DNA from: Lysobacteraceae bacterium
GTDB lineage: Bacteria; Pseudomonadota; Gammaproteobacteria; Xanthomonadales; Xanthomonadaceae
Direction of reading: 5' to 3'
Assembly: GCA_017990865.1 (NCBI GenBank)
Contig: JAGNNB010000020.1
Span: 1-16,636, forward strand
DNA length: 16,636 nucleotides
Positions 20 through 12,995 of this stretch are shown piece after piece. The stretch's first letter is position 1, and each line of letters begins with the position of its first letter. The notes under the pieces are model-generated. The model was given only the letters and a program-made list of their open reading frames with translations. It was not told where the DNA came from and searched no databases. The translations under genes were made by a program, and so were the position numbers.

Positions 20-1279
20 GTGACTACATCCTCCGCACCGACCGCCGCCGGCCGACGCGCCGCGCTCGCGTTCATCTTCATCACCATCCTGATCGACGTG
101 CTGGCGTTCGGCGTGATCATTCCGGTGCTGCCGCATTTGGTGGAAGACTTCGTCGGCGGCGATACCTCCGCTGCGGCGTACTGGACCGGCATCTTCAGTT
201 TCGCCTTCGCCGTGGTGCAGTTTTTCAGCGCACCGGTGCAAGGCGCCTTGTCCGACCGTTTCGGCCGGCGCCCTGTGATCCTGATCTCGTGCCTCGGTTT
301 GGGCCTGGATTTCGTGTTCATGGCGCTGGCGCCGAACCTGGCATGGCTGTTCGTCGGCCGCATCCTGTCGGCCATTACCTCGGCCAGCTTCACCACCGCG
401 AACGCTTACATCGCCGACATCACCGCGCCGCAAGACCGCGCGAAAAGCTACGGCATGCTCGGCGCCGCCTTCGGTTTGGGCTTCATCCTCGGGCCTCTGC
501 TCGGCGGCGTGCTCGGCGATGTCGATCAGCGCCTGCCGTTCTGGTGTTCGGCGGCATTGGCGCTGCTGAATTTCCTGTACGGCCTGTTCGTGTTGCCCGA
601 ATCGTTGCCGAAGGAACGCCGCTCGGCCACCTTCGATTGGTCGCACGCCAAACCGATGGGCGGCGTCAAACTGTTGCGCAATTACCCGCAAATCTGGGGC
701 TTGGTGGCGGTGGTGTTCATCGCCAACTTCGCGCATTACGTGTATCCCAGCACCTTCGTGCTGTACGCCGACGCCAGCTTCGGTTGGAAAGAGAAACAGG
801 CCGGTTACGTGCTGGCCGTGGTCGGCGTGTTCAGCGTGATCGTCAACGCGATCCTGGTCGGTAAATTGGTCAAAGCGATGGGCGAACGCCGCGCCGTGCT
901 GTTCGGCTTGAGCTGCGGCGTGATCGGCTTCGTGATCTACGGCTTCGCCGGACAAGGTTGGGTGTTCATGCTCGGTCTGCCGATCAGCGCGCTGTGGGCG
1001 ATCGCCGCGCCCGCGTGCCAAGCGCTGATCACGCAGCAAGTGGAACCGCAGATGCAGGGCCGCATCCAAGGCGCGATGAGCAGTTTGATTTCGCTCGCGG
1101 GCATCGTCGCGCCGCTGCTCTTCGCCAGTTCCTTCGGCTATTTCATAGGCCCGCACGCGCCGATGCATCTGCCCGGCATCGCGTTCCTGATCGCAGCGGC
1201 GCTGTTGGCGAGCGCGGTGCTTGTGGCGTGGCGTTACGCGCGACCGGGGCCGATCGTCGAACACGTCATCGTTCGATAA
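20..1279 (+). CDS. MFS efflux transporter, TCR/Tet (TetA-like) family
   Basis: This encodes a 419-aa inner-membrane drug/H+ antiporter of the major facilitator superfamily, with length and about 12 hydrophobic segments typical of TetA-like pumps. The first helix carries DVLAFGVIIPVLP (residues 26-38), the signature of the Tet branch. MFS motif A is seen as GALSDRFGRRP (75-85), and an antiporter motif C-like stretch GFILGPLLGG lies at 154-163. The family exports small hydrophobic or cationic compounds in exchange for protons; the substrate cannot be read from sequence, and tetracycline resistance should not be assumed. The start used is GTG at 20, which gives a short N-terminal tail before helix 1. 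It lies at the window edge, so an upstream start or operon partner cannot be excluded. The gene converges on rmuC, with REP hairpins between the two. Confidence 0.9.
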   Translation: MTTSSAPTAAGRRAALAFIFITILIDVLAFGVIIPVLPHLVEDFVGGDTSAAAYWTGIFSFAFAVVQFFSAPVQGALSDRFGRRPVILISCLGLGLDFVFMALAPNLAWLFVGRILSAITSASFTTANAYIADITAPQDRAKSYGMLGAAFGLGFILGPLLGGVLGDVDQRLPFWCSAALALLNFLYGLFVLPESLPKERRSATFDWSHAKPMGGVKLLRNYPQIWGLVAVVFIANFAHYVYPSTFVLYADASFGWKEKQAGYVLAVVGVFSVIVNAILVGKLVKAMGERRAVLFGLSCGVIGFVIYGFAGQGWVFMLGLPISALWAIAAPACQALITQQVEPQMQGRIQGAMSSLISLAGIVAPLLFASSFGYFIGPHAPMHLPGIAFLIAAALLASAVLVAWRYARPGPIVEHVIVR

Positions 1280-1432: not shown

Positions 1433-2809
1433 TCAGGCGTCTTCGTCCGACTCGTCCGCCGCCGCATCGCCCAGCAGCTTTTGCGCGTCGAGCATCGGCA
1501 GCGATTCCACGTCGCGCAATTTGCGCGTCAACACGCGGCTGCGTCGGCTGGTTTCTTCGATCTTGCCGCTGGCTTCGTCCAACTTCTTCTTCACCGCGTC
1601 CAGCGCGTCGCCGAACTTACCGAACTCGCTCTTCACCGCGCCGAGCGTGCGCCACACTTCGCTGGAACGCTCCTGGATCGCGAGCGTGCGGAAACCCATC
1701 TGGAAACTGGTCATCAGCGCCAGCAAGGTCGTCGGCCCGGCCACCGCGATGCGTTGATCGCGCTGCAGCGCTTCCACCAGACCCGGGCGACGCAATACCT
1801 CCGCGTATAAACCTTCGGTCGGCAGGAACAGAATCGCGAATTCGGTGGTGTGCGGCGGCGCGACGTAATTCTCGCGGATCTCCTTCGCCTGTTTGCGCAC
1901 TTGTCGTTCCAGCGCGTCGCCCGCGAGGCGCGCGGAGTCCACATCGCCGCGCTCCTGCGCATCGAGCAGACGTTCGTAATCTTCGCGCGGGAATTTGGCG
2001 TCGATCGGCAGCCACACCGGGCCTTCGCCGTCGTTGCCGGGGAATTTCACCGCGAATTCCACGAAGCCCTTCGAGCCCGGCACGGTCTTGACGTTGGCCG
2101 CGTACTGATCCGGCGCGAACACCTGTTCCAGCAGCGCCGCCAACTGCACTTCGCCGAACACGCCGCGGCTTTTCACGTTGGTCAGCACGCGTTGCAGGCC
2201 GCCGACATCCGCGGCCAGTTTGTTCATGTCGCCCAGGCCTTGATGCACCTGCGCCAACATCTGCGCGACGTTGCCGAAGCTCTCGGTCAAGCGCGTTTCG
2301 AGCGTCGTCTTCAACTTCTCGTCGACGGTCTCGCGCATGCGTTCGAGTTTCTCTTCGTTGCTGCGCTGCAGGTCGGCGAGTTTCTGCTCCAACGTCGCGC
2401 GCAGTTCGCCCAGGCGCTGCTCGTTGCGATCGGTCAATTCGCGCAATTGCACGCCGAGGCCGTCGGCGAATTGCTGTTGCCGCGTCGCCGATTCCGTGCG
2501 GGCCTTGTGCGCGTCGTCGTTGAGCGCGATGCGCAGTTCGTCCAGGCGCGAATCGGTGCGCGCGGTCAGATCGTCCAGGCTGCGCCCGAAGGCTTCGATC
2601 CGCTGACTCTGGCCGATCGCGAGACTGTCGAGCTGCGCGCGCAGCTCGCCGCGCCCGGCGCGTTGTTCCTCGCGCAGCGCGGCTTCGACGCGGTCGCGCA
2701 GGCGCTCCAACGCGGTGTCGGGTTTGCGCAGCAACAATAGAATCAGCAGCACCAGCGCGACCGCGACGGCGATCAAAAGCAATAAGAGGAGAAGGTATGT
2801 GTCGTTCAT
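1433..2809 (-). CDS. rmuC: DNA recombination protein RmuC
   Basis: This encodes a 458-aa RmuC, a membrane-anchored protein that limits inversion and recombination at short inverted repeats and has a nuclease-like fold. Residues 4-27 form one hydrophobic anchor. Residues about 30-200 are rich in Glu, Arg, Gln and Leu and look like a long coiled coil. The conserved RmuC domain follows, with GVFGEVQL (216-223) and IDAKFP (269-274), the latter resembling a PD-(D/E)XK active-site strand. The length is close to that of E. coli RmuC. The ATG at 2809 gives a protein starting directly with the anchor. The gene appears monocistronic. Its 3' end faces the REP cluster, and its 5' side borders the AT-rich Shedu insert. 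The last ~15 residues are acidic (ADESDEDA). Confidence 0.95.
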   Translation of the reverse strand: MNDTYLLLLLLLIAVAVALVLLILLLLRKPDTALERLRDRVEAALREEQRAGRGELRAQLDSLAIGQSQRIEAFGRSLDDLTARTDSRLDELRIALNDDAHKARTESATRQQQFADGLGVQLRELTDRNEQRLGELRATLEQKLADLQRSNEEKLERMRETVDEKLKTTLETRLTESFGNVAQMLAQVHQGLGDMNKLAADVGGLQRVLTNVKSRGVFGEVQLAALLEQVFAPDQYAANVKTVPGSKGFVEFAVKFPGNDGEGPVWLPIDAKFPREDYERLLDAQERGDVDSARLAGDALERQVRKQAKEIRENYVAPPHTTEFAILFLPTEGLYAEVLRRPGLVEALQRDQRIAVAGPTTLLALMTSFQMGFRTLAIQERSSEVWRTLGAVKSEFGKFGDALDAVKKKLDEASGKIEETSRRSRVLTRKLRDVESLPMLDAQKLLGDAAADESDEDA

Positions 2810-2847
2810 AGGTTCTAGTCTAGCGGAGCCCCCTTCGTCTCAAAAAG

Positions 2848-2856
2848 TGTGATAAT
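2848..2856 (+). promoter_or_regulatory. Possible extended -10 promoter for the Shedu insert
   Basis: The sequence TGTGATAAT has the TGn extension plus a 5/6 match to TATAAT. No good -35 is present 17 nt upstream, which is usual for extended -10 promoters. A transcript would start near 2863, about 60 nt before the first gene. Inferred only. Confidence 0.4.
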
Positions 2857-2922
2857 CCTTGCACCCCCAGCACCCCGCCGCCGGGGATATTCTGGTTTCG
2901 ATTGTTATGCCATGGAGGCAGT

Positions 2923-3252
2923 ATGTCTTTAGATATTCTTCAATCTGCTATTAAAAACCTTCAACCGATTGAATTTGAATATAACAAATCTGGCAAGACA
3001 CCGGGGAAGCGGATTGGAAATCCCCATGCTGTTTTCATTATTAAGCGCAAGGATGGCAGCGACTCTACCAAGGTTCATATTGTTCAAACCGATGGGGTTA
3101 GCGACAGTGGACAAGAATTTCCAAGCTTTAGGATGTTCGATATCGAAGAGCTTAGCGATATCAAGCTACTGAATAATTCAATGAAATTTAAACCATCTGA
3201 AAAATATAACTCTCAATGGGAAGGTTACGCTTTTGTAATCTGCAAAATCTAA
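2923..3252 (+). CDS. Small WYL-like domain protein next to SduA
   Basis: This encodes a 109-aa protein that I do not recognise as a named gene. The pattern AIKNLQPIEFEY (9-20), R30, NPHAVFI (33-39), HIVQTDGVSDSG (52-63), FRMFDIEEL (69-77) and a following I-x-L-L resembles the core of WYL-type ligand-binding domains (Y...R...PH...Q..G.S.SG...FR...I). That match is by eye. The ATG at 2923 is preceded by GGAGG at 2914-2918 with a 4-nt spacer, which decides this start over an in-frame TTG at 2902. It ends 7 nt before sduA, so the two genes are very probably cotranscribed. Base composition is AT-rich like sduA and unlike the flanks. It has no helix-turn-helix, so it could sense a ligand or bind the nuclease rather than repress transcription. 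Regulation of Shedu is inference. Confidence 0.75.
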   Translation: MSLDILQSAIKNLQPIEFEYNKSGKTPGKRIGNPHAVFIIKRKDGSDSTKVHIVQTDGVSDSGQEFPSFRMFDIEELSDIKLLNNSMKFKPSEKYNSQWEGYAFVICKI

Positions 3253-3259
3253 GCCCATC

Positions 3260-4258
3260 ATGAGCATTGATCATAAATTCGAGATCGATGGCGACCCAAG
3301 GTACAAGCTTGTCTTTAATTTTTCCGGAGCAGACTCGGAAATCGGGAACCCAGCACTTTTCAAAGGTGCTTTTTATGCGTACGACAAAAATAACGGAACG
3401 CCAGCATTTACTTGCAACATAGAACTAAAGGATATTTTTAGGCTCTATGATCATTTAAGCGCATATAGTTTTATACGCAAAAAAAGACCTCCGTCAAACG
3501 AAAAATTTTTAGAGGTCACAACTAGCCCAGACCAGCTTATCCAAATGATGGAATATTTCAGCAATGATGCTGTCGTTAATTCAATCAAACATATTGTAAC
3601 AAATAGACTTTCTAGCAGTGATATAAACACGATTTTAGGAAGAAAAGAAGCATTAAAAATCTTTGAAGAAATGCTCTATGGAAAGAAAAGTTACCAGGAA
3701 AAGACTTGGCAATCTTTTTTTGAGAGGAACGAATGGATTTTTGGTTATGGATTGAAGTACAGATATCTTCGCATTTTGCAAAGGGAGTCTAGGGTTGGGA
3801 AAGGCGGTATTGATGGGAAAGGCGACGTTGTTGTTGATTTTTTATTGGGTGACTCTCGTTTTACTAAATTAATTGAGTTAAAAAAACCTGACACAAAACT
3901 ATTCAAATCAAGAAAAAATAGATCAGACTCTTGGAGTATTTCTAGCGATCTTACCGATTCTGTAAGTCAAATCCTCGCCCAAAAGGCAAATTGGGAAATC
4001 GAGAGCAATAAAACCCAATACTCCACTACTGGCAAAAGGATAGTTGAAGCATCTCATGACGTGGAATGTATTTTGGTCGTTGGTTTACTAAGTGCAGTAG
4101 ACGGAAGCGATCTTGAAAAATCGATCAAGTTGAAAACGATAGAGCTTTTTCGTCGAAACTTAAGGAATATCGAAATAATTACCTACGACGAATTACTAGA
4201 ACGCGCAAAATTTATTGTTAATTTGCCCGATAGCCAGATTGCGGAAAGTGAAGATTGA
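3260..4258 (+). CDS. sduA: Shedu anti-phage nuclease SduA (DUF4263)
   Basis: This encodes a 332-aa protein with a C-terminal Shedu/DUF4263 domain. Known members are single-gene anti-phage effectors with a PD-(D/E)XK nuclease fold. The domain begins at KTWQSFFERNEWIFGYG (148-164). It then shows the catalytic pattern D193 ... IELKKP with E206 and K208, a following helix with SVSQILAQK including Q237, a hydrophobic strand CILVVGL (270-276), and the closing IITYDELLERAKFIV (306-320). Residues 1-140 form a different, probably sensory domain without recognised motifs; variable N-terminal domains are usual in this family. All expected catalytic residues are present, so the gene looks intact. It starts at ATG 3260, 7 nt after the WYL-like gene, with a poor ribosome site, suggesting translational coupling. 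AT-rich composition and many AGA and AAA codons against GC-rich flanks indicate horizontal acquisition. Confidence 0.92.
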   Translation: MSIDHKFEIDGDPRYKLVFNFSGADSEIGNPALFKGAFYAYDKNNGTPAFTCNIELKDIFRLYDHLSAYSFIRKKRPPSNEKFLEVTTSPDQLIQMMEYFSNDAVVNSIKHIVTNRLSSSDINTILGRKEALKIFEEMLYGKKSYQEKTWQSFFERNEWIFGYGLKYRYLRILQRESRVGKGGIDGKGDVVVDFLLGDSRFTKLIELKKPDTKLFKSRKNRSDSWSISSDLTDSVSQILAQKANWEIESNKTQYSTTGKRIVEASHDVECILVVGLLSAVDGSDLEKSIKLKTIELFRRNLRNIEIITYDELLERAKFIVNLPDSQIAESED

Positions 4259-4389
4259 TGAGAGTTCTCGATCAAAGTTATAGGCCTACAGTTTTGCCGG
4301 ATAGATACCTGAAACGGCGCTTATGGGCAAAAAATAGATTGTGGGAACACCATCTACAAACAAAAAAGTTTCTTCTCGATGACAGTTGA
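4258..4389 (+). CDS. Possible small protein (43 aa) touching the sduA stop
   Basis: An ATG at 4258 shares one base with the sduA stop codon (TGATG), a classic termination-reinitiation arrangement. The reading frame runs 43 codons to TGA at 4387-4389. The product starts MRVLDQSYRPTVLP and is basic overall, with RYLKRRLW in the middle and acidic residues at the end. A purine-rich stretch GGAAAGTGAAG lies upstream inside sduA. I recognise no family. It could be a genuine small Shedu partner, the degenerate remnant of a longer gene, or a chance ORF in AT-rich DNA. Confidence 0.3.
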   Translation: MRVLDQSYRPTVLPDRYLKRRLWAKNRLWEHHLQTKKFLLDDS

Positions 4390-4420
4390 CATTAATTTGT
4401 CACCATTTCGACATTAGACT
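4386..4420 (+). promoter_or_regulatory. Possible promoter/operator upstream of the WHEF-motif gene
   Basis: TTGACA at 4386-4391 is a perfect -35 hexamer. TGACA (4387-4391) and TGTCA (4398-4402) form an inverted repeat with a 6-nt AT spacer. No convincing -10 sits 16-18 nt downstream; the nearest TA-rich hexamer is TAGACT at 4415. This is also where AT-rich DNA changes to GC-rich DNA. Confidence 0.3.
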
Positions 4421-4456
4421 TGGCGCACTTCAAAGCCAATCGGAGCGTGCGCACCT

Positions 4457-5152
4457 ATGAGGCCCATCGAAGTTGTCCCGTTCGCCATCGTGTTCTCCAT
4501 GATCGCCCTCGTCGCATGGAGAGTCCGCCAGAAAATCGTACGGATGCGGCATGTGCGCGAAGCAGCGCTACCGCCCGGCCTCTTCGACAAACTGCGCCGC
4601 CGGCGCCCGGACATCGATCCGAAGCAGTTCCCCTTGCTCGAACGCGCGCTGCGCGACTTTTTCGCGGCGTATCTGCGCAGCGGCTACAAACCGGTGTCGA
4701 TGCCTTCGCAAGCCGCCGACGAGTTGTGGCACGAATTCATCCTCTACACCCGCCACTATCAAGCCTTCTGCGACAAGGCCTTCGGTCGCTTCCTGCATCA
4801 CACGCCCGCGGTGGTCTTGTCGAAAGCCTACGACCGCAACGTCGGCCTGCGCCGGGTGTGGTGGCACACCTGCAAACTCGAAGGCATCGACCCGCGCAAG
4901 GCGAGCCGCCTGCCGCTGCTGTTCGCGCTGGACACGCAACTCGCGCTGGCCGACGGTTTCCATTACGCGCTGGATTGCGGCGGCATCCGCGACCGCACCG
5001 ACGGCGGCGGCGGTTCGCAATGCGCCGCCGACATGAGCGACAGCTCCTTCGACGGCACCACCGACGGGTTGGGCGATGGCGATGGCGGCGGTGGAGACGG
5101 CGGCGATGGCGGTGGCGATAGCGGCTGCGGCGGGGGCTGCGGCGGAGACTAA
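4457..5152 (+). CDS. Membrane-anchored protein with WHEF/FLHH core and Gly/Cys-rich tail
   Basis: This encodes a 231-aa protein of unknown function. Residues 7-22 form one membrane helix at the N-terminus, followed by a basic stretch. The core contains SMPSQAADELWHEFILYT (81-98), Y101, FC (104-105) and FGRFLHH (109-115). This resembles the conserved core of glycine-rich-domain proteins (GRDP/DUF1399 type), with the invariant MPS, D..WH, Y..FC and G..L.H residues. A second block, RLPLLFALD (151-159), precedes the tail. From about residue 182 to the end it is low-complexity Gly/Asp, finishing with GCGGGCGG. The His and Cys residues make metal binding possible, but that is inference. The gene resumes GC-rich composition after the Shedu insert. 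It ends 10 nt before the stop of the convergent secreted-protein gene. The ribosome site before ATG 4457 is weak. Confidence 0.8.
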   Translation: MRPIEVVPFAIVFSMIALVAWRVRQKIVRMRHVREAALPPGLFDKLRRRRPDIDPKQFPLLERALRDFFAAYLRSGYKPVSMPSQAADELWHEFILYTRHYQAFCDKAFGRFLHHTPAVVLSKAYDRNVGLRRVWWHTCKLEGIDPRKASRLPLLFALDTQLALADGFHYALDCGGIRDRTDGGGGSQCAADMSDSSFDGTTDGLGDGDGGGGDGGDGGGDSGCGGGCGGD

Positions 5153-9316: not shown

Positions 9317-9586
9317 ATGCACGCCTACGTCTATAAGAGCCAGCGGAAGGCCGACACGTTCGTTTACCTCGCCGCGCGCGACGACTTCGCCTGCGTGCCG
9401 CCGGCGCTGCTCGCGCACCTGGGCGCTTTGCGCTTCGTCCTGGACGTGGCCCTGACCCCGGAACGCAAGCTGGCGCAGGCCGACCCGGCCGTGGTGCGCA
9501 CGAATTTGGCGAGCCGCGGGTTTTACGTACAAACGCCGGCGACCGCACTCGATCCGATGACCGAGGATTGGGGCACCGATGGTTGA
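9317..9586 (+). CDS. ycgL: YcgL domain protein
   Basis: This encodes an 89-aa protein of the YcgL family, similar in length to the E. coli protein (about 90-108 aa depending on start). The diagnostic pattern is visible: [22 protein letters not shown] (3-24, Y-x-S-x-K-x-D-x-T-Y), [10 protein letters not shown] (27-36), the [14 protein letters not shown] block (50-63) and GFYVQTP (67-73). The molecular function is unsettled. ATG 9317 begins the conserved first strand. No strong ribosome site is visible. The 3' end overlaps the start of the ankyrin gene by 8 nt, so the two are cotranscribed and probably translationally coupled. Confidence 0.93.
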
Positions 9587-12500
9587 TCCGTCGCGCATGG
9601 ACGACGATCTCCTGTCGGGCAGCGCTGTCGGCGCCTCATCGGGCGGCGTCGCATCCGACTCGGCCGCGGACCTCGCCAATGATGCCGGTGCGCCGACGTC
9701 GACGCTGAACACCGCCAGCCCCCGGGCGCGCGCCTGGCCCTGGTTTCTGGGCGGCGGCGCGATCGCCTTGTCGGCGGGATTCGGGCCGGCGTTCGCGGCG
9801 TTCGCGGCCGTGTTGGCGCAGCCGGTGCTGGCCTTGGGCGTACGCGCGTGGCACGGCGAGCGCGTGCAATGGAAACGTCTCGACACGCGCGCGCTTCTCG
9901 AACTGACCTTGCTGTGGGCGTTGGCGTTCGCGGTCTGCGCGGCATTGGTCGCATGGCCGCTGAGCGCGCTGTCGCAGAGCCGCAGCTTGGGATCGGCTCT
10001 GGCCCTGAGCGCCGTCGTCGGCGGTTTGACGCTCGGTTTCTGGCGTTTATGGCCGCTGTGGCGTGGCATGGAACGCGAACCCGGACGGATCGCCGCGCAT
10101 TGGCCCGCGCTGGCCGACACCGACACCCGCGCCTGGATCGGTTTGGGCGCTGCGCTGCTGCTGATGACGCCGGTGTCGATGGCGCTGATGCTGGCGTGGC
10201 CCGGCCTGATCGACGGCGCCGCGCGCTGGTGGTGGGCGGGCGCCGCTGCGGCGATCTGGCCGCTGGCGCATCTGGGCCTGCAGCGCTTGCCCGCGCCGGA
10301 ACGCTACAGCGCCGATGCGCTGCTGGACGAAGCCTCTGCGGAATCGGCCGAGGACGCGGTGGTCGCGGCCGAGGACGAGGATTTCGACACCGCGCTCTAC
10401 GACGCCGCCCGCAACGGCCGGGTCGAACGCGCCCTGGCCCTGCTCGATGCCGGCGCCGACCCGCACGCGCTGCCGCCGGCCGATGCGCGCGATCAACGCG
10501 ATCTGGCGATGCTGGCCGCAGTGCTGCCGGATCTGCGCTTGCTGCGCGGCTTGATCGGCCGCGGCGTGGATCTCAACGCCGGTCACGGCGGCATGACCGC
10601 GCTGATCGCCGCCACCCGCGATAGTTGGCACGGCCGCCCGGATGCGGTGATGACTCTGCTGACCAACGGCGCCGACCCGCGTTTGGCCGATCACGACGGC
10701 AATACGCCGCTCCACCACGCCGCGCGCAGTTCCGACCCCGGCGTGGCCGCGCTGCTGCGCGATGCCGGCGCGGAGATCGACGTGCTCAACCGCGAAGGCG
10801 CGTCGCCGTTGGCGGTGGCCTGCATCGCCGGCAATTGGCGGCTCGCCCGGTTTTTGCTGGAACGCGGCGCCAAGCCCGAACCCGTCGGCGGCGTGCCGAC
10901 CCTGCACGCGGCGGCCGGCGGCGATGAAGACGACCCCGCGGGCGTGCAACTACTGCTCAAACACAAGGCGAAAGCCGACGCGCGCGACCCGCGCGGGCGC
11001 AGCGCGCTGCACGAAGCGGCGTACGCCGGACACGTCGAAATCGTCGGCATTCTGCTCGGCGCCGGCGCCGACGTGCAGGCGCGCGATCACGACCAACGCA
11101 CGCCGTTTCTCGAAGCCGCCCGCGGCGCGCAGATCGGCGCGGCGCGCACGCTGGCCGAGGCGCGTGCGGATGCGCAAGCGGTCGATGCCCACGGCCGTAA
11201 TGCGCTGATGTTGGCCTGCCTCGCCGATGCGCCCTCGCCGGCCTTGATTCGCGGTTTGCTTGATCTCGGCGTCGACCCCGAACGCGCCGACGACGACGGC
11301 CGTCGCGCGGCGGATGTGGCCGCGGCCGCAGGCCGTTGGGCGCTGGTGGCGGCGATCGATCCGGCCTCGCAATTGCCGGCCAGCCTGCGCAACGACGACA
11401 CCGTCGACGACGACGCTCCGCTGCCCGACCGGCCGCCGTTCGAACTGCTGCGCGAAGCCTTGGAGCGCGGCGATCCGGCCGCCGCCGCGCAATGGCGCGC
11501 CTTGGTGCCGAACGAAGCGCTGACGGCGCTGTTCGACGACAACGGCCACCCCGCCGGCGAGGCGCGGATCGATTGGCTGCTGCGACACGGCGCCGACCCC
11601 GACGCGCGCGAAGCGCAGGCCGATACCGTGCTGTTCGGCTGGCTGGCGCAAGGCCCGGCTGCGGCCGGCGCGGTCTCCGTCCTGCTGCGGCACGGTGTCT
11701 CGCCCGCCGGTGCCGGCGGACTGGCGCGTTTCCTCGCCGCCTGCGCCGCCGCCGACCGCGCGGATCTCAGCCTGGAACGGCTGGCGCTGGATATGTTGGA
11801 CCGCGGCGCCGACCCGTTCGCACCCTCGCGAAACGGCGACCCGCCGCTGCCGCTCGCGGTGCGCCTGGGCTGGAACCGTTTGATCGCCCGCCTGCTCGAC
11901 ATCGGCATCGCTCTGGACGCGCGCGACCAGCACGGCATGACCGCGCTGCATCTGGCCGCCGCGCTGCGCCGCGAGACGGTGCTGAAGCAATTGATCCTGC
12001 ACGGCGCCTCGCCGGACGTGCGCGCCGCCGACGGACAAACCCCACTGGGCGTCGCGCTCGCCAGCGGCCGGCGCGATTTGGCCGATTGGCTGGACTGGCG
12101 CCAGTGGCCGCTGCCGAAACGTCCGCTGCGGGCGAGCGACTTGCCGCAGGCGGCGATGGTCGGGGACGCCGATGCGGTGCGCCGTCTGCTCGATCTGGGC
12201 TTGGCCATCGACACCACCGACGCGCAAGGCTGCAGCGCGCTGCTTCGCGCGGCCGGCGGCGGTCATCGCGCTGTGGTCGAACTGCTGCTGACGCGTGGCG
12301 CCGATCCGAAACTCGCCGCGCGCACTGGCGCCACGCCGCTGTCGGCGGCGGTGAGCATGCGTCAACTCGCCATCGTCGATCGCCTGCTCGGCGCGGGCGC
12401 GCTGCTGGAACAACGCCTGCCCGGCGACGTGACCGTGTTGATGCTGGCCGCCGCGCTGGGCCTGCCCGATGTCTGCGCGCGTTTGCTCGCCGCTGGCGCG

Positions 12501-12995
12501 AACATCAACGCCGCCGACGCCCAAGGCCTCACGCCGCTGCACTGCGCCGGCCTGTACGGCTTCACCTCGCGCGATCGTCCGCGTTTGCTCGCGCTGCTCG
12601 ACGCTCTGCTGCTGGCCGGCGCCGATCCCGACGCCACCGCCGCGGGCGGCGTCACGCCGCTGCTGCTGTTGCTGGGCGCGCGCGCCGAACCCGGCACCGC
12701 GTGCGACGAAGACGTGGTGCTGGCCGGCGCGCATCGGTTGTTGGACGAAGGCGCGAACATGCAGGTGCGCGACCCCCGCGGCTTCGGCCCGCTGCATCTC
12801 GCCGCGTTGCACGGACTCCTGCGCGTCGCCAAGGATTTACTGCGCGGCGGCGCCGCGCCCGAACCGCGCGACAACCTCAACCGCACCCCGCGCGAAATCG
12901 CGGTGATGCGCGGCTTCGTCGATGTCGCCGCGGAATTCGCACCGCGCCCGACCGATCTATCGATGGCGCGGTTTTTGAGGGATCGGGAGACGTGA
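9579..12995 (+). CDS. Large membrane protein with about 20 ankyrin repeats
   Basis: This encodes an 1138-aa protein. A polar, Ser/Asp-rich N-terminus (1-50) is followed by hydrophobic segments at about 53-90, 107-130, 138-160, 186-209 and 216-235, giving five or six membrane helices. From about 268 to the end the chain consists of ankyrin repeats with the usual TPLHxAA...LL..GAD.. pattern. Clear units include [58 protein letters not shown] and [13 protein letters not shown] count roughly 20, some degenerate. A 60-residue stretch near 590-650 interrupts the array with a Pro/Asp-rich linker. Ankyrin arrays bind proteins; membrane anchoring suggests a scaffold at the inner membrane, with partners unknown. 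ATG 9579 overlaps the ycgL end by 8 nt (GAGGATTGGGG upstream); ATG 9597 is an alternative. Confidence 0.9.

What the first reader, a model, noticed from the sequence alone, without database searches (positions are those of the whole stretch)
2840..4410. AT-rich Shedu defence insert between rmuC and a core-like gene
The composition changes abruptly from GC-rich to AT-rich at about 2840 and back at about 4410. The insert contains an intact SduA (PD-(D/E)XK residues D193, E206, K208) and small companions, but no integrase or transposase. It looks like a compact defence cassette dropped into a core locus, possibly a recurrent defence insertion site next to rmuC.
Basis: partly seen in the sequence, partly recalled or inferred. 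Interest (0 to 1): 0.75.

Follow-up and report, generated by a model that had tools for sequence, protein, structure and literature searches.

The report
Shedu nuclease with WYL partner
Beside the DNA-recombination gene rmuC this bacterium carries an inserted two-gene cassette that encodes a nuclease of the Shedu phage-defence family and, just in front of it, a small protein with a predicted WYL fold that sits next to this type of Shedu in every such cassette examined; the small protein likely senses single-stranded DNA and would switch the nuclease on.

Summary
An AT-rich insert (about 2842-4369; 33-46% GC, against 60-75% around it) lies between rmuC and the gene at 4457. Two same-genus genomes have the empty site. 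SduA (3260-4258) is intact and clearly Shedu (PADLOC E 4.5e-128, Pfam E 3.6e-27; D193, E206 and K208 invariant in 44 of 44 aligned sequences).

The 'small companion' is one real gene, 2923-3252 (109 aa): a stand-alone WYL domain without HTH by predicted fold, nearest to the WYL regulators BrxR, DriD, PafBC and CapW. It lies 1-7 bp upstream of this SduA subtype in 9 of 9 loci (7 distinct pairs: E. coli, Pantoea, Serratia, Vibrio and others) and in 0 of 16 loci of other SduA types. The two proteins diverge together (r 0.87). E. coli RefSeq calls it 'hypothetical protein'; PADLOC treats Shedu as SduA alone. So this is a two-gene Shedu variant, probably a nuclease with a separate ssDNA-sensing subunit. 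In E. coli and Pantoea the pair is cargo of P4-like satellites.

A recurrent defence hotspot at rmuC is not supported in 27 relatives. The sensor mechanism is inferred, and the main Shedu classification paper could not be read here.

The parts
2842..4369 (.). Foreign AT-rich segment carrying the two-gene cassette
   Evidence: Composition; empty sites G006 and G007; flanking 8-bp imperfect direct repeats
2834..2841 (+). Left copy of imperfect direct repeat, TTCGTCTC
   Evidence: GTCGTCTC at the matching place in the empty sites
4370..4377 (+). Right copy of imperfect direct repeat, TTCTTCTC
2923..3252 (+). Companion: stand-alone WYL-domain protein (predicted fold), 109 aa, no HTH; GGAGG ribosome-binding-like site at 2914-2918
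   Evidence: Most homologues start at the same Met; 39 of 42 aligned members hit PF13280 at E<=1, best 1.1e-5; AlphaFold pLDDT 95.0; nearest folds all WYL proteins
3260..4258 (+). SduA (Shedu nuclease), 332 aa; PD-(D/E)XK residues D193, E206, K208
   Evidence: PADLOC PDLC00382 E 4.5e-128; PF14082 E 3.6e-27; 8ti8 E 2.5e-20; A2 alignment
3253..3259 (+). 7-bp gap between companion stop and SduA start; 1-3 bp in the other pairs
   Evidence: Sequence
2782..2833 (-). Diverged rmuC first codons and promoter stretch (TAGACT, 7 nt before the ATG), different from both sister genomes
1433..2809 (-). rmuC, left flank of the insertion
   Evidence: PF02646 E 3.6e-70; orthologues in relatives
4457..5152 (+). 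Right flank: WHEF-motif protein with a glycine-rich tail, lineage-specific
   Evidence: no Pfam match

Best explanation
A two-gene cassette inserted beside rmuC encodes an intact Shedu (SduA) nuclease and, 7 bp upstream, a 109-residue protein with a predicted stand-alone WYL fold that is likely its sensor subunit, predicted to bind single-stranded DNA and to switch the nuclease on during phage infection. Shown here: both frames are open, the nuclease residues are conserved, the companion's confident model is a WYL barrel without an HTH, the two genes are adjacent in every locus of this SduA subtype examined, they diverge together, and the insertion has empty counterparts in sister genomes. Inferred: the near-zero spacing implies coupled translation and a protein complex; the WYL barrel would recognise single-stranded DNA made by phage injection or replication, as DriD and CapW bind it; SduA would then cut near the DNA end, as E. 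coli Shedu does. In other words, the sensing job that other Shedu proteins do with a fused N-terminal domain is here shared with a separate small protein. The pair travels as cargo (P4-like satellites in E. coli and Pantoea) and likely reached this genome by an event that left only the cassette.
Against: No interaction, ligand or activity was tested. By eye the companion lacks the W-Y-L tripeptide (KVHIVQ in its place), and its own Pfam score is below the curated cut-off (16.8 against 21.8 bits); the best PDB sequence match, BrxR, is only E 0.013. It lacks the WCX domain that accompanies the WYL domain in CapW (PMC9122588 passages), so ssDNA binding may not carry over. SduA here keeps its own N-terminal part of about 115 residues, which could itself be the sensor. 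The SduA model is weak (pLDDT 68.7, 168-199 below 50). Nine loci are only 7 distinct pairs, and all but the window and L077 were fetched through SduA (or, for E. coli, the whole Pantoea pair). Weak companion-like matches without SduA exist in four genomes (25-40 bits).
Confidence: 0.5

Rival explanations
1. The WYL companion is an inhibitor or safety catch: it binds SduA and keeps the nuclease silent until a nucleic-acid ligand releases it, like an antitoxin.
For: It is the first gene of a tightly spaced pair, the usual antitoxin order (recalled); review PMC12904381 (passages) reports toxicity when Shedu is expressed in foreign hosts and suspects unidentified specificity factors.
Against: WYL1 of the Cas13d system boosts its nuclease (PMC6547453 abstract); single-protein Shedu systems manage without such a partner.
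Confidence: 0.22
2. The companion only tunes expression, as BrxR and CapW do for BREX and CBASS, and SduA defends alone.
For: The nearest folds are the transcription factors BrxR, CapW, DriD and PafBC; defence loci often carry WYL regulators (PMC9122588 passages).
Against: No HTH or other DNA-reading domain was found: the protein is one helix, a five-stranded barrel and a short tail.
Confidence: 0.1
3. The pair serves mobile elements in competition with one another (satellite against phage or plasmid), and in this chromosome it is a stranded cargo rather than a selected host defence.
For: The pair ends a P4-like satellite gene set in 3 E. coli genomes, two of them seen next to tRNA-Thr, and lies between Ogr/Delta and integrase genes in Pantoea.
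Against: No satellite gene was found in the window; an intact active site suggests upkeep or recent arrival. It differs from the best explanation in beneficiary, not in mechanism.
Confidence: 0.13
4. The 109-aa ORF is a passenger with no link to SduA.
For: Weak single-sequence Pfam score.
Against: Conserved adjacency in Pantoea, Serratia, E. coli, Vibrio, the window's lineage and a virus contig; co-divergence; spacing of 1-7 bp.
Confidence: 0.05

Closest known systems
Bacillus cereus Shedu SduA (PDB 8ti8, 8ti9)
   Same: Same nuclease domain (E 2.5e-20; Foldseek E 8.8e-9); E206 of the window protein aligns with the Glu that is Ala in 8ti9
   Different: 8ti8 is 382 aa, and only window residues 73-322 align to it; I know of no companion (recalled, not searched)
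E. coli SduA (PDB 8ps5) that senses DNA ends
   Same: Shedu nuclease family; structural match E 1.5e-5
   Different: Works with an N-terminal clamp that binds DNA ends and is described without a partner in review PMC12904381 (passages)
Vibrio cholerae VcSduA (PMC12137116)
   Same: DUF4263 nuclease with anti-phage activity shown
   Different: Fused N-terminal GHKL ATPase; one gene (passages)
WYL regulators BrxR, CapW, DriD, PafBC
   Different: They are transcription regulators with further domains (titles; CapW passages); the companion has the WYL unit alone
RspWYL1, accessory of Cas13d (PMC6547453)
   Same: A WYL protein in a defence locus that boosts its nuclease
   Different: Three domains (ribbon-helix-helix, WYL, dimerisation domain); binds ssRNA; partner is an RNase (abstract)

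Membership tests
Shedu (SduA) nuclease family | DUF4263 / SduA_C domain (PF14082) over the curated cut-off | tested here: met
   95.9 bits against cut-off 27; PADLOC SduA 425 bits over residues 1-321
Shedu (SduA) nuclease family | PD-(D/E)XK active-site residues intact | tested here: met
   D193, E206, K208 invariant in 44 of 44 aligned sequences
Shedu (SduA) nuclease family | Anti-phage activity | not testable with these tools
   Needs plating tests
Shedu types I and II as described in review PMC12409362 | Single-protein system | tested here: not met
   A conserved second gene is adjacent in 9 of 9 loci of this SduA subtype; whether SduA also works alone is untested
WYL domain family | PF13280 match over the curated cut-off | tested here: inconclusive
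   Window protein 16.8 bits, cut-off 21.8; 39 of 42 aligned members match at E<=1, best 1.1e-5
WYL domain family | WYL (Sm-like) barrel fold | tested here: met
   AlphaFold pLDDT 95.0; top rows of Foldseek and VIA-align are WYL proteins, with Sm/Hfq lower
WYL transcription factors (BrxR, CapW, DriD) | N-terminal HTH domain | tested here: not met
   No HTH family among the Pfam matches of the window protein or of 42 aligned members; no room for one in the 109-aa model
Cas13d accessory WYL1 | Ribbon-helix-helix and C-terminal dimerisation domains | tested here: not met
   109-aa protein modelled as a single barrel; the definition is taken from the abstract of PMC6547453
P4-like satellite | Integrase, DUF927-type primase and Ogr/Delta genes around the cargo (gene set recalled) | tested here: not met
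   Present around the pair in E. coli L164-L166 and Pantoea L053; none among nine main ORFs of the window
Defence hotspot at rmuC | Different defence genes at the same site in several relatives | tested here: not met
   27 relatives, first 0.66-1.5 kb 5' of rmuC: no AT-rich insert beside a GC-rich rmuC; of 129 ORFs only methyltransferase-type PADLOC matches (7 mad2, one of them also MTase_II)

The most novel reading that the evidence does not exclude
This is a split Shedu: an obligate two-protein immune nuclease in which a free-standing, HTH-less WYL barrel acts as the ssDNA sensor that licenses SduA in trans, so WYL domains would be direct on-switches of a DNA-cutting effector and not only transcription-factor sensors.
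Probability: 0.42. Interest if true: 0.72.

Novelty: new variant of a known kind. Interest (0 to 1): 0.55.

Why it matters
Shedu is catalogued as a single-gene system (PADLOC paper PMC8565338, passages; types I and II in review PMC12409362). If one SduA subtype that is found in several genera needs a WYL partner, clones and screens that carry SduA only may look inactive or toxic. A minimal WYL protein of 109 residues beside a nuclease would also make an open question directly testable: what WYL domains sense, and whether they can act on an effector without transcription. The pair is compact (about 1.34 kb) and occurs in complete E. coli genomes (3 of 5,426), so the test is easy in laboratory strains.

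Tried and rejected
Hotspot idea: not supported. A first scan took 37 non-overlapping ORFs of 27 relatives chosen by length, which in GC-rich DNA can pick wrong frames; the repeat took all 129 ORFs of 120 aa or more, so shorter ORFs and anything beyond 1.5 kb were missed. PADLOC's mad2 matches 7 of these 129 (best E 1e-27), Type II methyltransferase one (E 4.8e-4). I named two of the mad2 ORFs: both are nearest to the rRNA methyltransferase RlmI (257 and 262 bits, under NCBI's cut-off of 712), so I read them as housekeeping genes; the other five are unnamed.

Other occupant at the site: in G009 the interval is 3,427 bp; its first 1.5 kb are GC-rich (0.58-0.64), one ORF resembles an ECF sigma factor by eye, and the three ORFs tested match nothing in PADLOC.

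Mobile-element ends: no shared word of 8 or more bases, direct or inverted, between 2771-2930 and 4241-4420; the repeat finder gave five short pairs that I take as chance. The 8-bp repeat with one mismatch at the junctions was seen by eye (printed) and is suggestive only. The crude scan found 0 sigma-70-like sites (3.7 expected) and 4 terminator-like sites (1.6 expected) in 2700-4500; I draw nothing from it.

Plasmids and phages: distant SduA on 106 plasmids, no companion match on plasmids or phages, no SduA in the phage records, none in viral contigs with the single query; with alignment A2 one contig, the one already found.

Weak companion matches in G139, G368, G1232 and G1375 (25-40 bits) were not counted as companions: frames of 100-179 residues with no SduA match in the stretches held. 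They could be read as distant companions without SduA.

Co-divergence test: of the 15 contig-length matches I used 11; left out were the window itself, two with an ambiguous length (3462) and one whose companion is a fragment.

SduA structure: the model is poor, so nothing about its N-terminal part is claimed from it.

Prior art: searches 'Shedu' (49 papers, 40 listed), 'Shedu'+'WYL' (5 papers, 4 listed), 'Shedu'/'sensor domains'/'DUF4263' (9 papers), 'SduA' (23 papers, 20 listed), a WYL-nuclease query (23 papers, 10 listed), 'DUF4263' (5 papers) and 'P4-like'+'satellite'+'Shedu' (3 papers). I opened passages of the four listed and of PMC12904381, PMC12137116, PMC9519451 and PMC10121019; none of those passages names a WYL partner of SduA. 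PMC12839542 says that fused N-terminal sensory modules form the basis of Shedu. The main classification paper (Gu et al. 2025, PMC11805627) is not held, so it may already describe this pair. PD-T4-8 (PMC9519451) has a DUF4263 domain; WYL does not occur in that main text.

Full report
Observation. The window has an abrupt AT-rich segment: GC is 0.345-0.435 in the 400-bp windows within 2801-4400 and 0.60 or more in windows wholly outside it. Of 59 genomes searched (the own one and 58 relatives), 48 have an rmuC match; 28 of these, own included, are plain orthologues at 49% identity or more. Two same-genus genomes, G006 and G007 (rmuC 98% and 96% identical), have rmuC and the 4457 gene about 120 bp apart, an empty site. 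Homology of the window to both stops at 2781 and resumes at 4371, with 62 bp of the empty site unaligned. G002 and G004 also have short intervals (151 and 163 bp).

Junctions. The stretch 2782-2833 differs from both sister genomes, yet keeps an rmuC-like start (M-x-D-T and a leucine run) and a TAGACT box 7 nt before the ATG, where most relatives have TACACT 6 nt before it. I read it as a diverged rmuC start and promoter, perhaps carried in with the cassette; that is an inference. The cassette is framed by TTCGTCTC (2834-2841) and TTCTTCTC (4370-4377), one mismatch, against a single GTCGTCTC in the empty sites. This resembles a short target duplication or microhomology and is not strong evidence for either. 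No longer shared words exist between the ends.

SduA. The 332-aa protein matches PADLOC SduA over residues 1-321 (E 4.5e-128), Pfam SduA_C (95.9 bits, cut-off 27) and the B. cereus Shedu structures (E 2.5e-20; Foldseek 8.8e-9 on a weak model). No NCBIfam model matches it. D193, E206 and K208 are invariant in 44 of 44 aligned sequences. The search gave 1,520 homologues, of which 120 were listed.

Pairing. I scanned 30 loci in six frames with profiles of both families. SduA was found in 25. The 9 with the full-length subtype of the window (window, Pantoea L053, Serratia L054, Vibrio L055, virus contig L077, E. coli L164-L166 with one shared allele, L168) all have the companion directly upstream. 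The 16 others do not; 15 of these have longer frames (382-470 residues) and one (L172) a frame of 337. The gap between the genes is 7 bp in the window and 1-3 bp in the others. A further 20 loci from 17 genomes of the class added no other pair: the profile of this subtype matched 10 of them, only the own genome over its full length, and the companion profile matched the own genome alone. In the same 369 genomes, a strong companion match occurs in one genome and SduA in 17. Other samples: 295 genomes searched with the Pantoea SduA gave 7 matches, two of this subtype (L053's own genome and G601), both paired; 394 and 397 genomes searched with the companion profile gave one strong match, the Vibrio used as centre, and two weak ones. 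So the pair is rare per genome but constant in form. L077 was found through the companion, not through SduA, and has SduA 2 bp downstream. Co-divergence supports joint inheritance (r 0.87, p 0.0024 on 7 pairs; shared ancestry alone also produces this). Contig-length coincidences suggest further pairs (15 of 120 against a control mean of 1.35).

Context elsewhere. In 3 of 5,426 E. coli genomes the pair is on the chromosome, at the end of what I read as a P4-like satellite, with integrase, phage capsid, Icd-like, DUF927 and ogr/Delta genes. Two of the three stretches show tRNA-Thr beside the integrase; the third begins inside the integrase and is rearranged around an insertion sequence. In Pantoea the pair lies between DUF927 primase plus Ogr/Delta and an integrase. 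RefSeq names the E. coli companion 'hypothetical protein'.

Mechanism. E. coli Shedu senses DNA ends and cuts near them (review PMC12904381, passages), and type I Shedu proteins carry diverse N-terminal regulatory domains (PMC12409362, section read). WYL proteins include ssDNA-binding regulators (PMC12409362 passages; DriD and CapW complexes with ssDNA). The simplest model is that this SduA subtype has moved part of its sensing into a separate WYL subunit made by coupled translation. Activation against inhibition cannot be told apart from sequence; I favour activation, on the WYL1-Cas13d precedent (PMC6547453, abstract).

Hotspot. 27 relatives with examined rmuC flanks (0.66-1.5 kb) show no AT-rich insert beside a GC-rich rmuC. 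Of 129 ORFs of 120 aa or more there, 7 match PADLOC's mad2 methyltransferase-type model and one of these also MTase_II, and no other defence model is matched; the two that I named are RlmI-like rRNA methyltransferases. Defence genes further away would have been missed.

Verdict. A true insertion with a true Shedu, and a conserved WYL partner that the databases and passages I could search do not link to SduA: a new variant of a known kind.

Noticed in passing
window 2782-2830 and rmuC 5' regions of L003-L021: Most relatives share a TACACT-6 nt-ATG element before rmuC, the -10-like box so close to the start that leaderless transcription is likely; the window has TAGACT at 7 nt.
   Followed up: partly
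window 4457-5152; G001:C30, G008:C71: The WHEF-motif protein with a glycine-rich tail has no Pfam match and occurs as neighbouring paralogues in two same-genus genomes.
   Followed up: no
L086:3849-4325 (IMG/VR contig) and similar loci L078-L156: 79 of the 80 virus contigs kept with the companion profile match it only distantly (23-33% identity); in L086 a 158-aa WYL-like ORF sits in a run of co-directional ORFs that looks like a phage structural region. Only L077, L078, L081 and L086 were inspected.
   Followed up: partly
G009:C148:4211-7639 (L072): The same rmuC interval holds 3.4 kb of other, GC-rich sequence, with one ORF that looks like an ECF sigma factor by eye.
   Followed up: partly
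window 9579-12995: 1138-aa ankyrin-repeat protein with ten Ank_2 stretches, in a segment of about 70-75% GC.
   Followed up: no
window 20-1279: MFS efflux protein related to the Tet(A)/Tet(B)/Tet(C) group but well below NCBI's curated cut-off (312.9 against 475 bits).
   Followed up: no
L029 (G040): A relative of the same order whose rmuC and nearest 5' flank are themselves AT-rich (0.44-0.48), an outlier among the orthologues.
   Followed up: no
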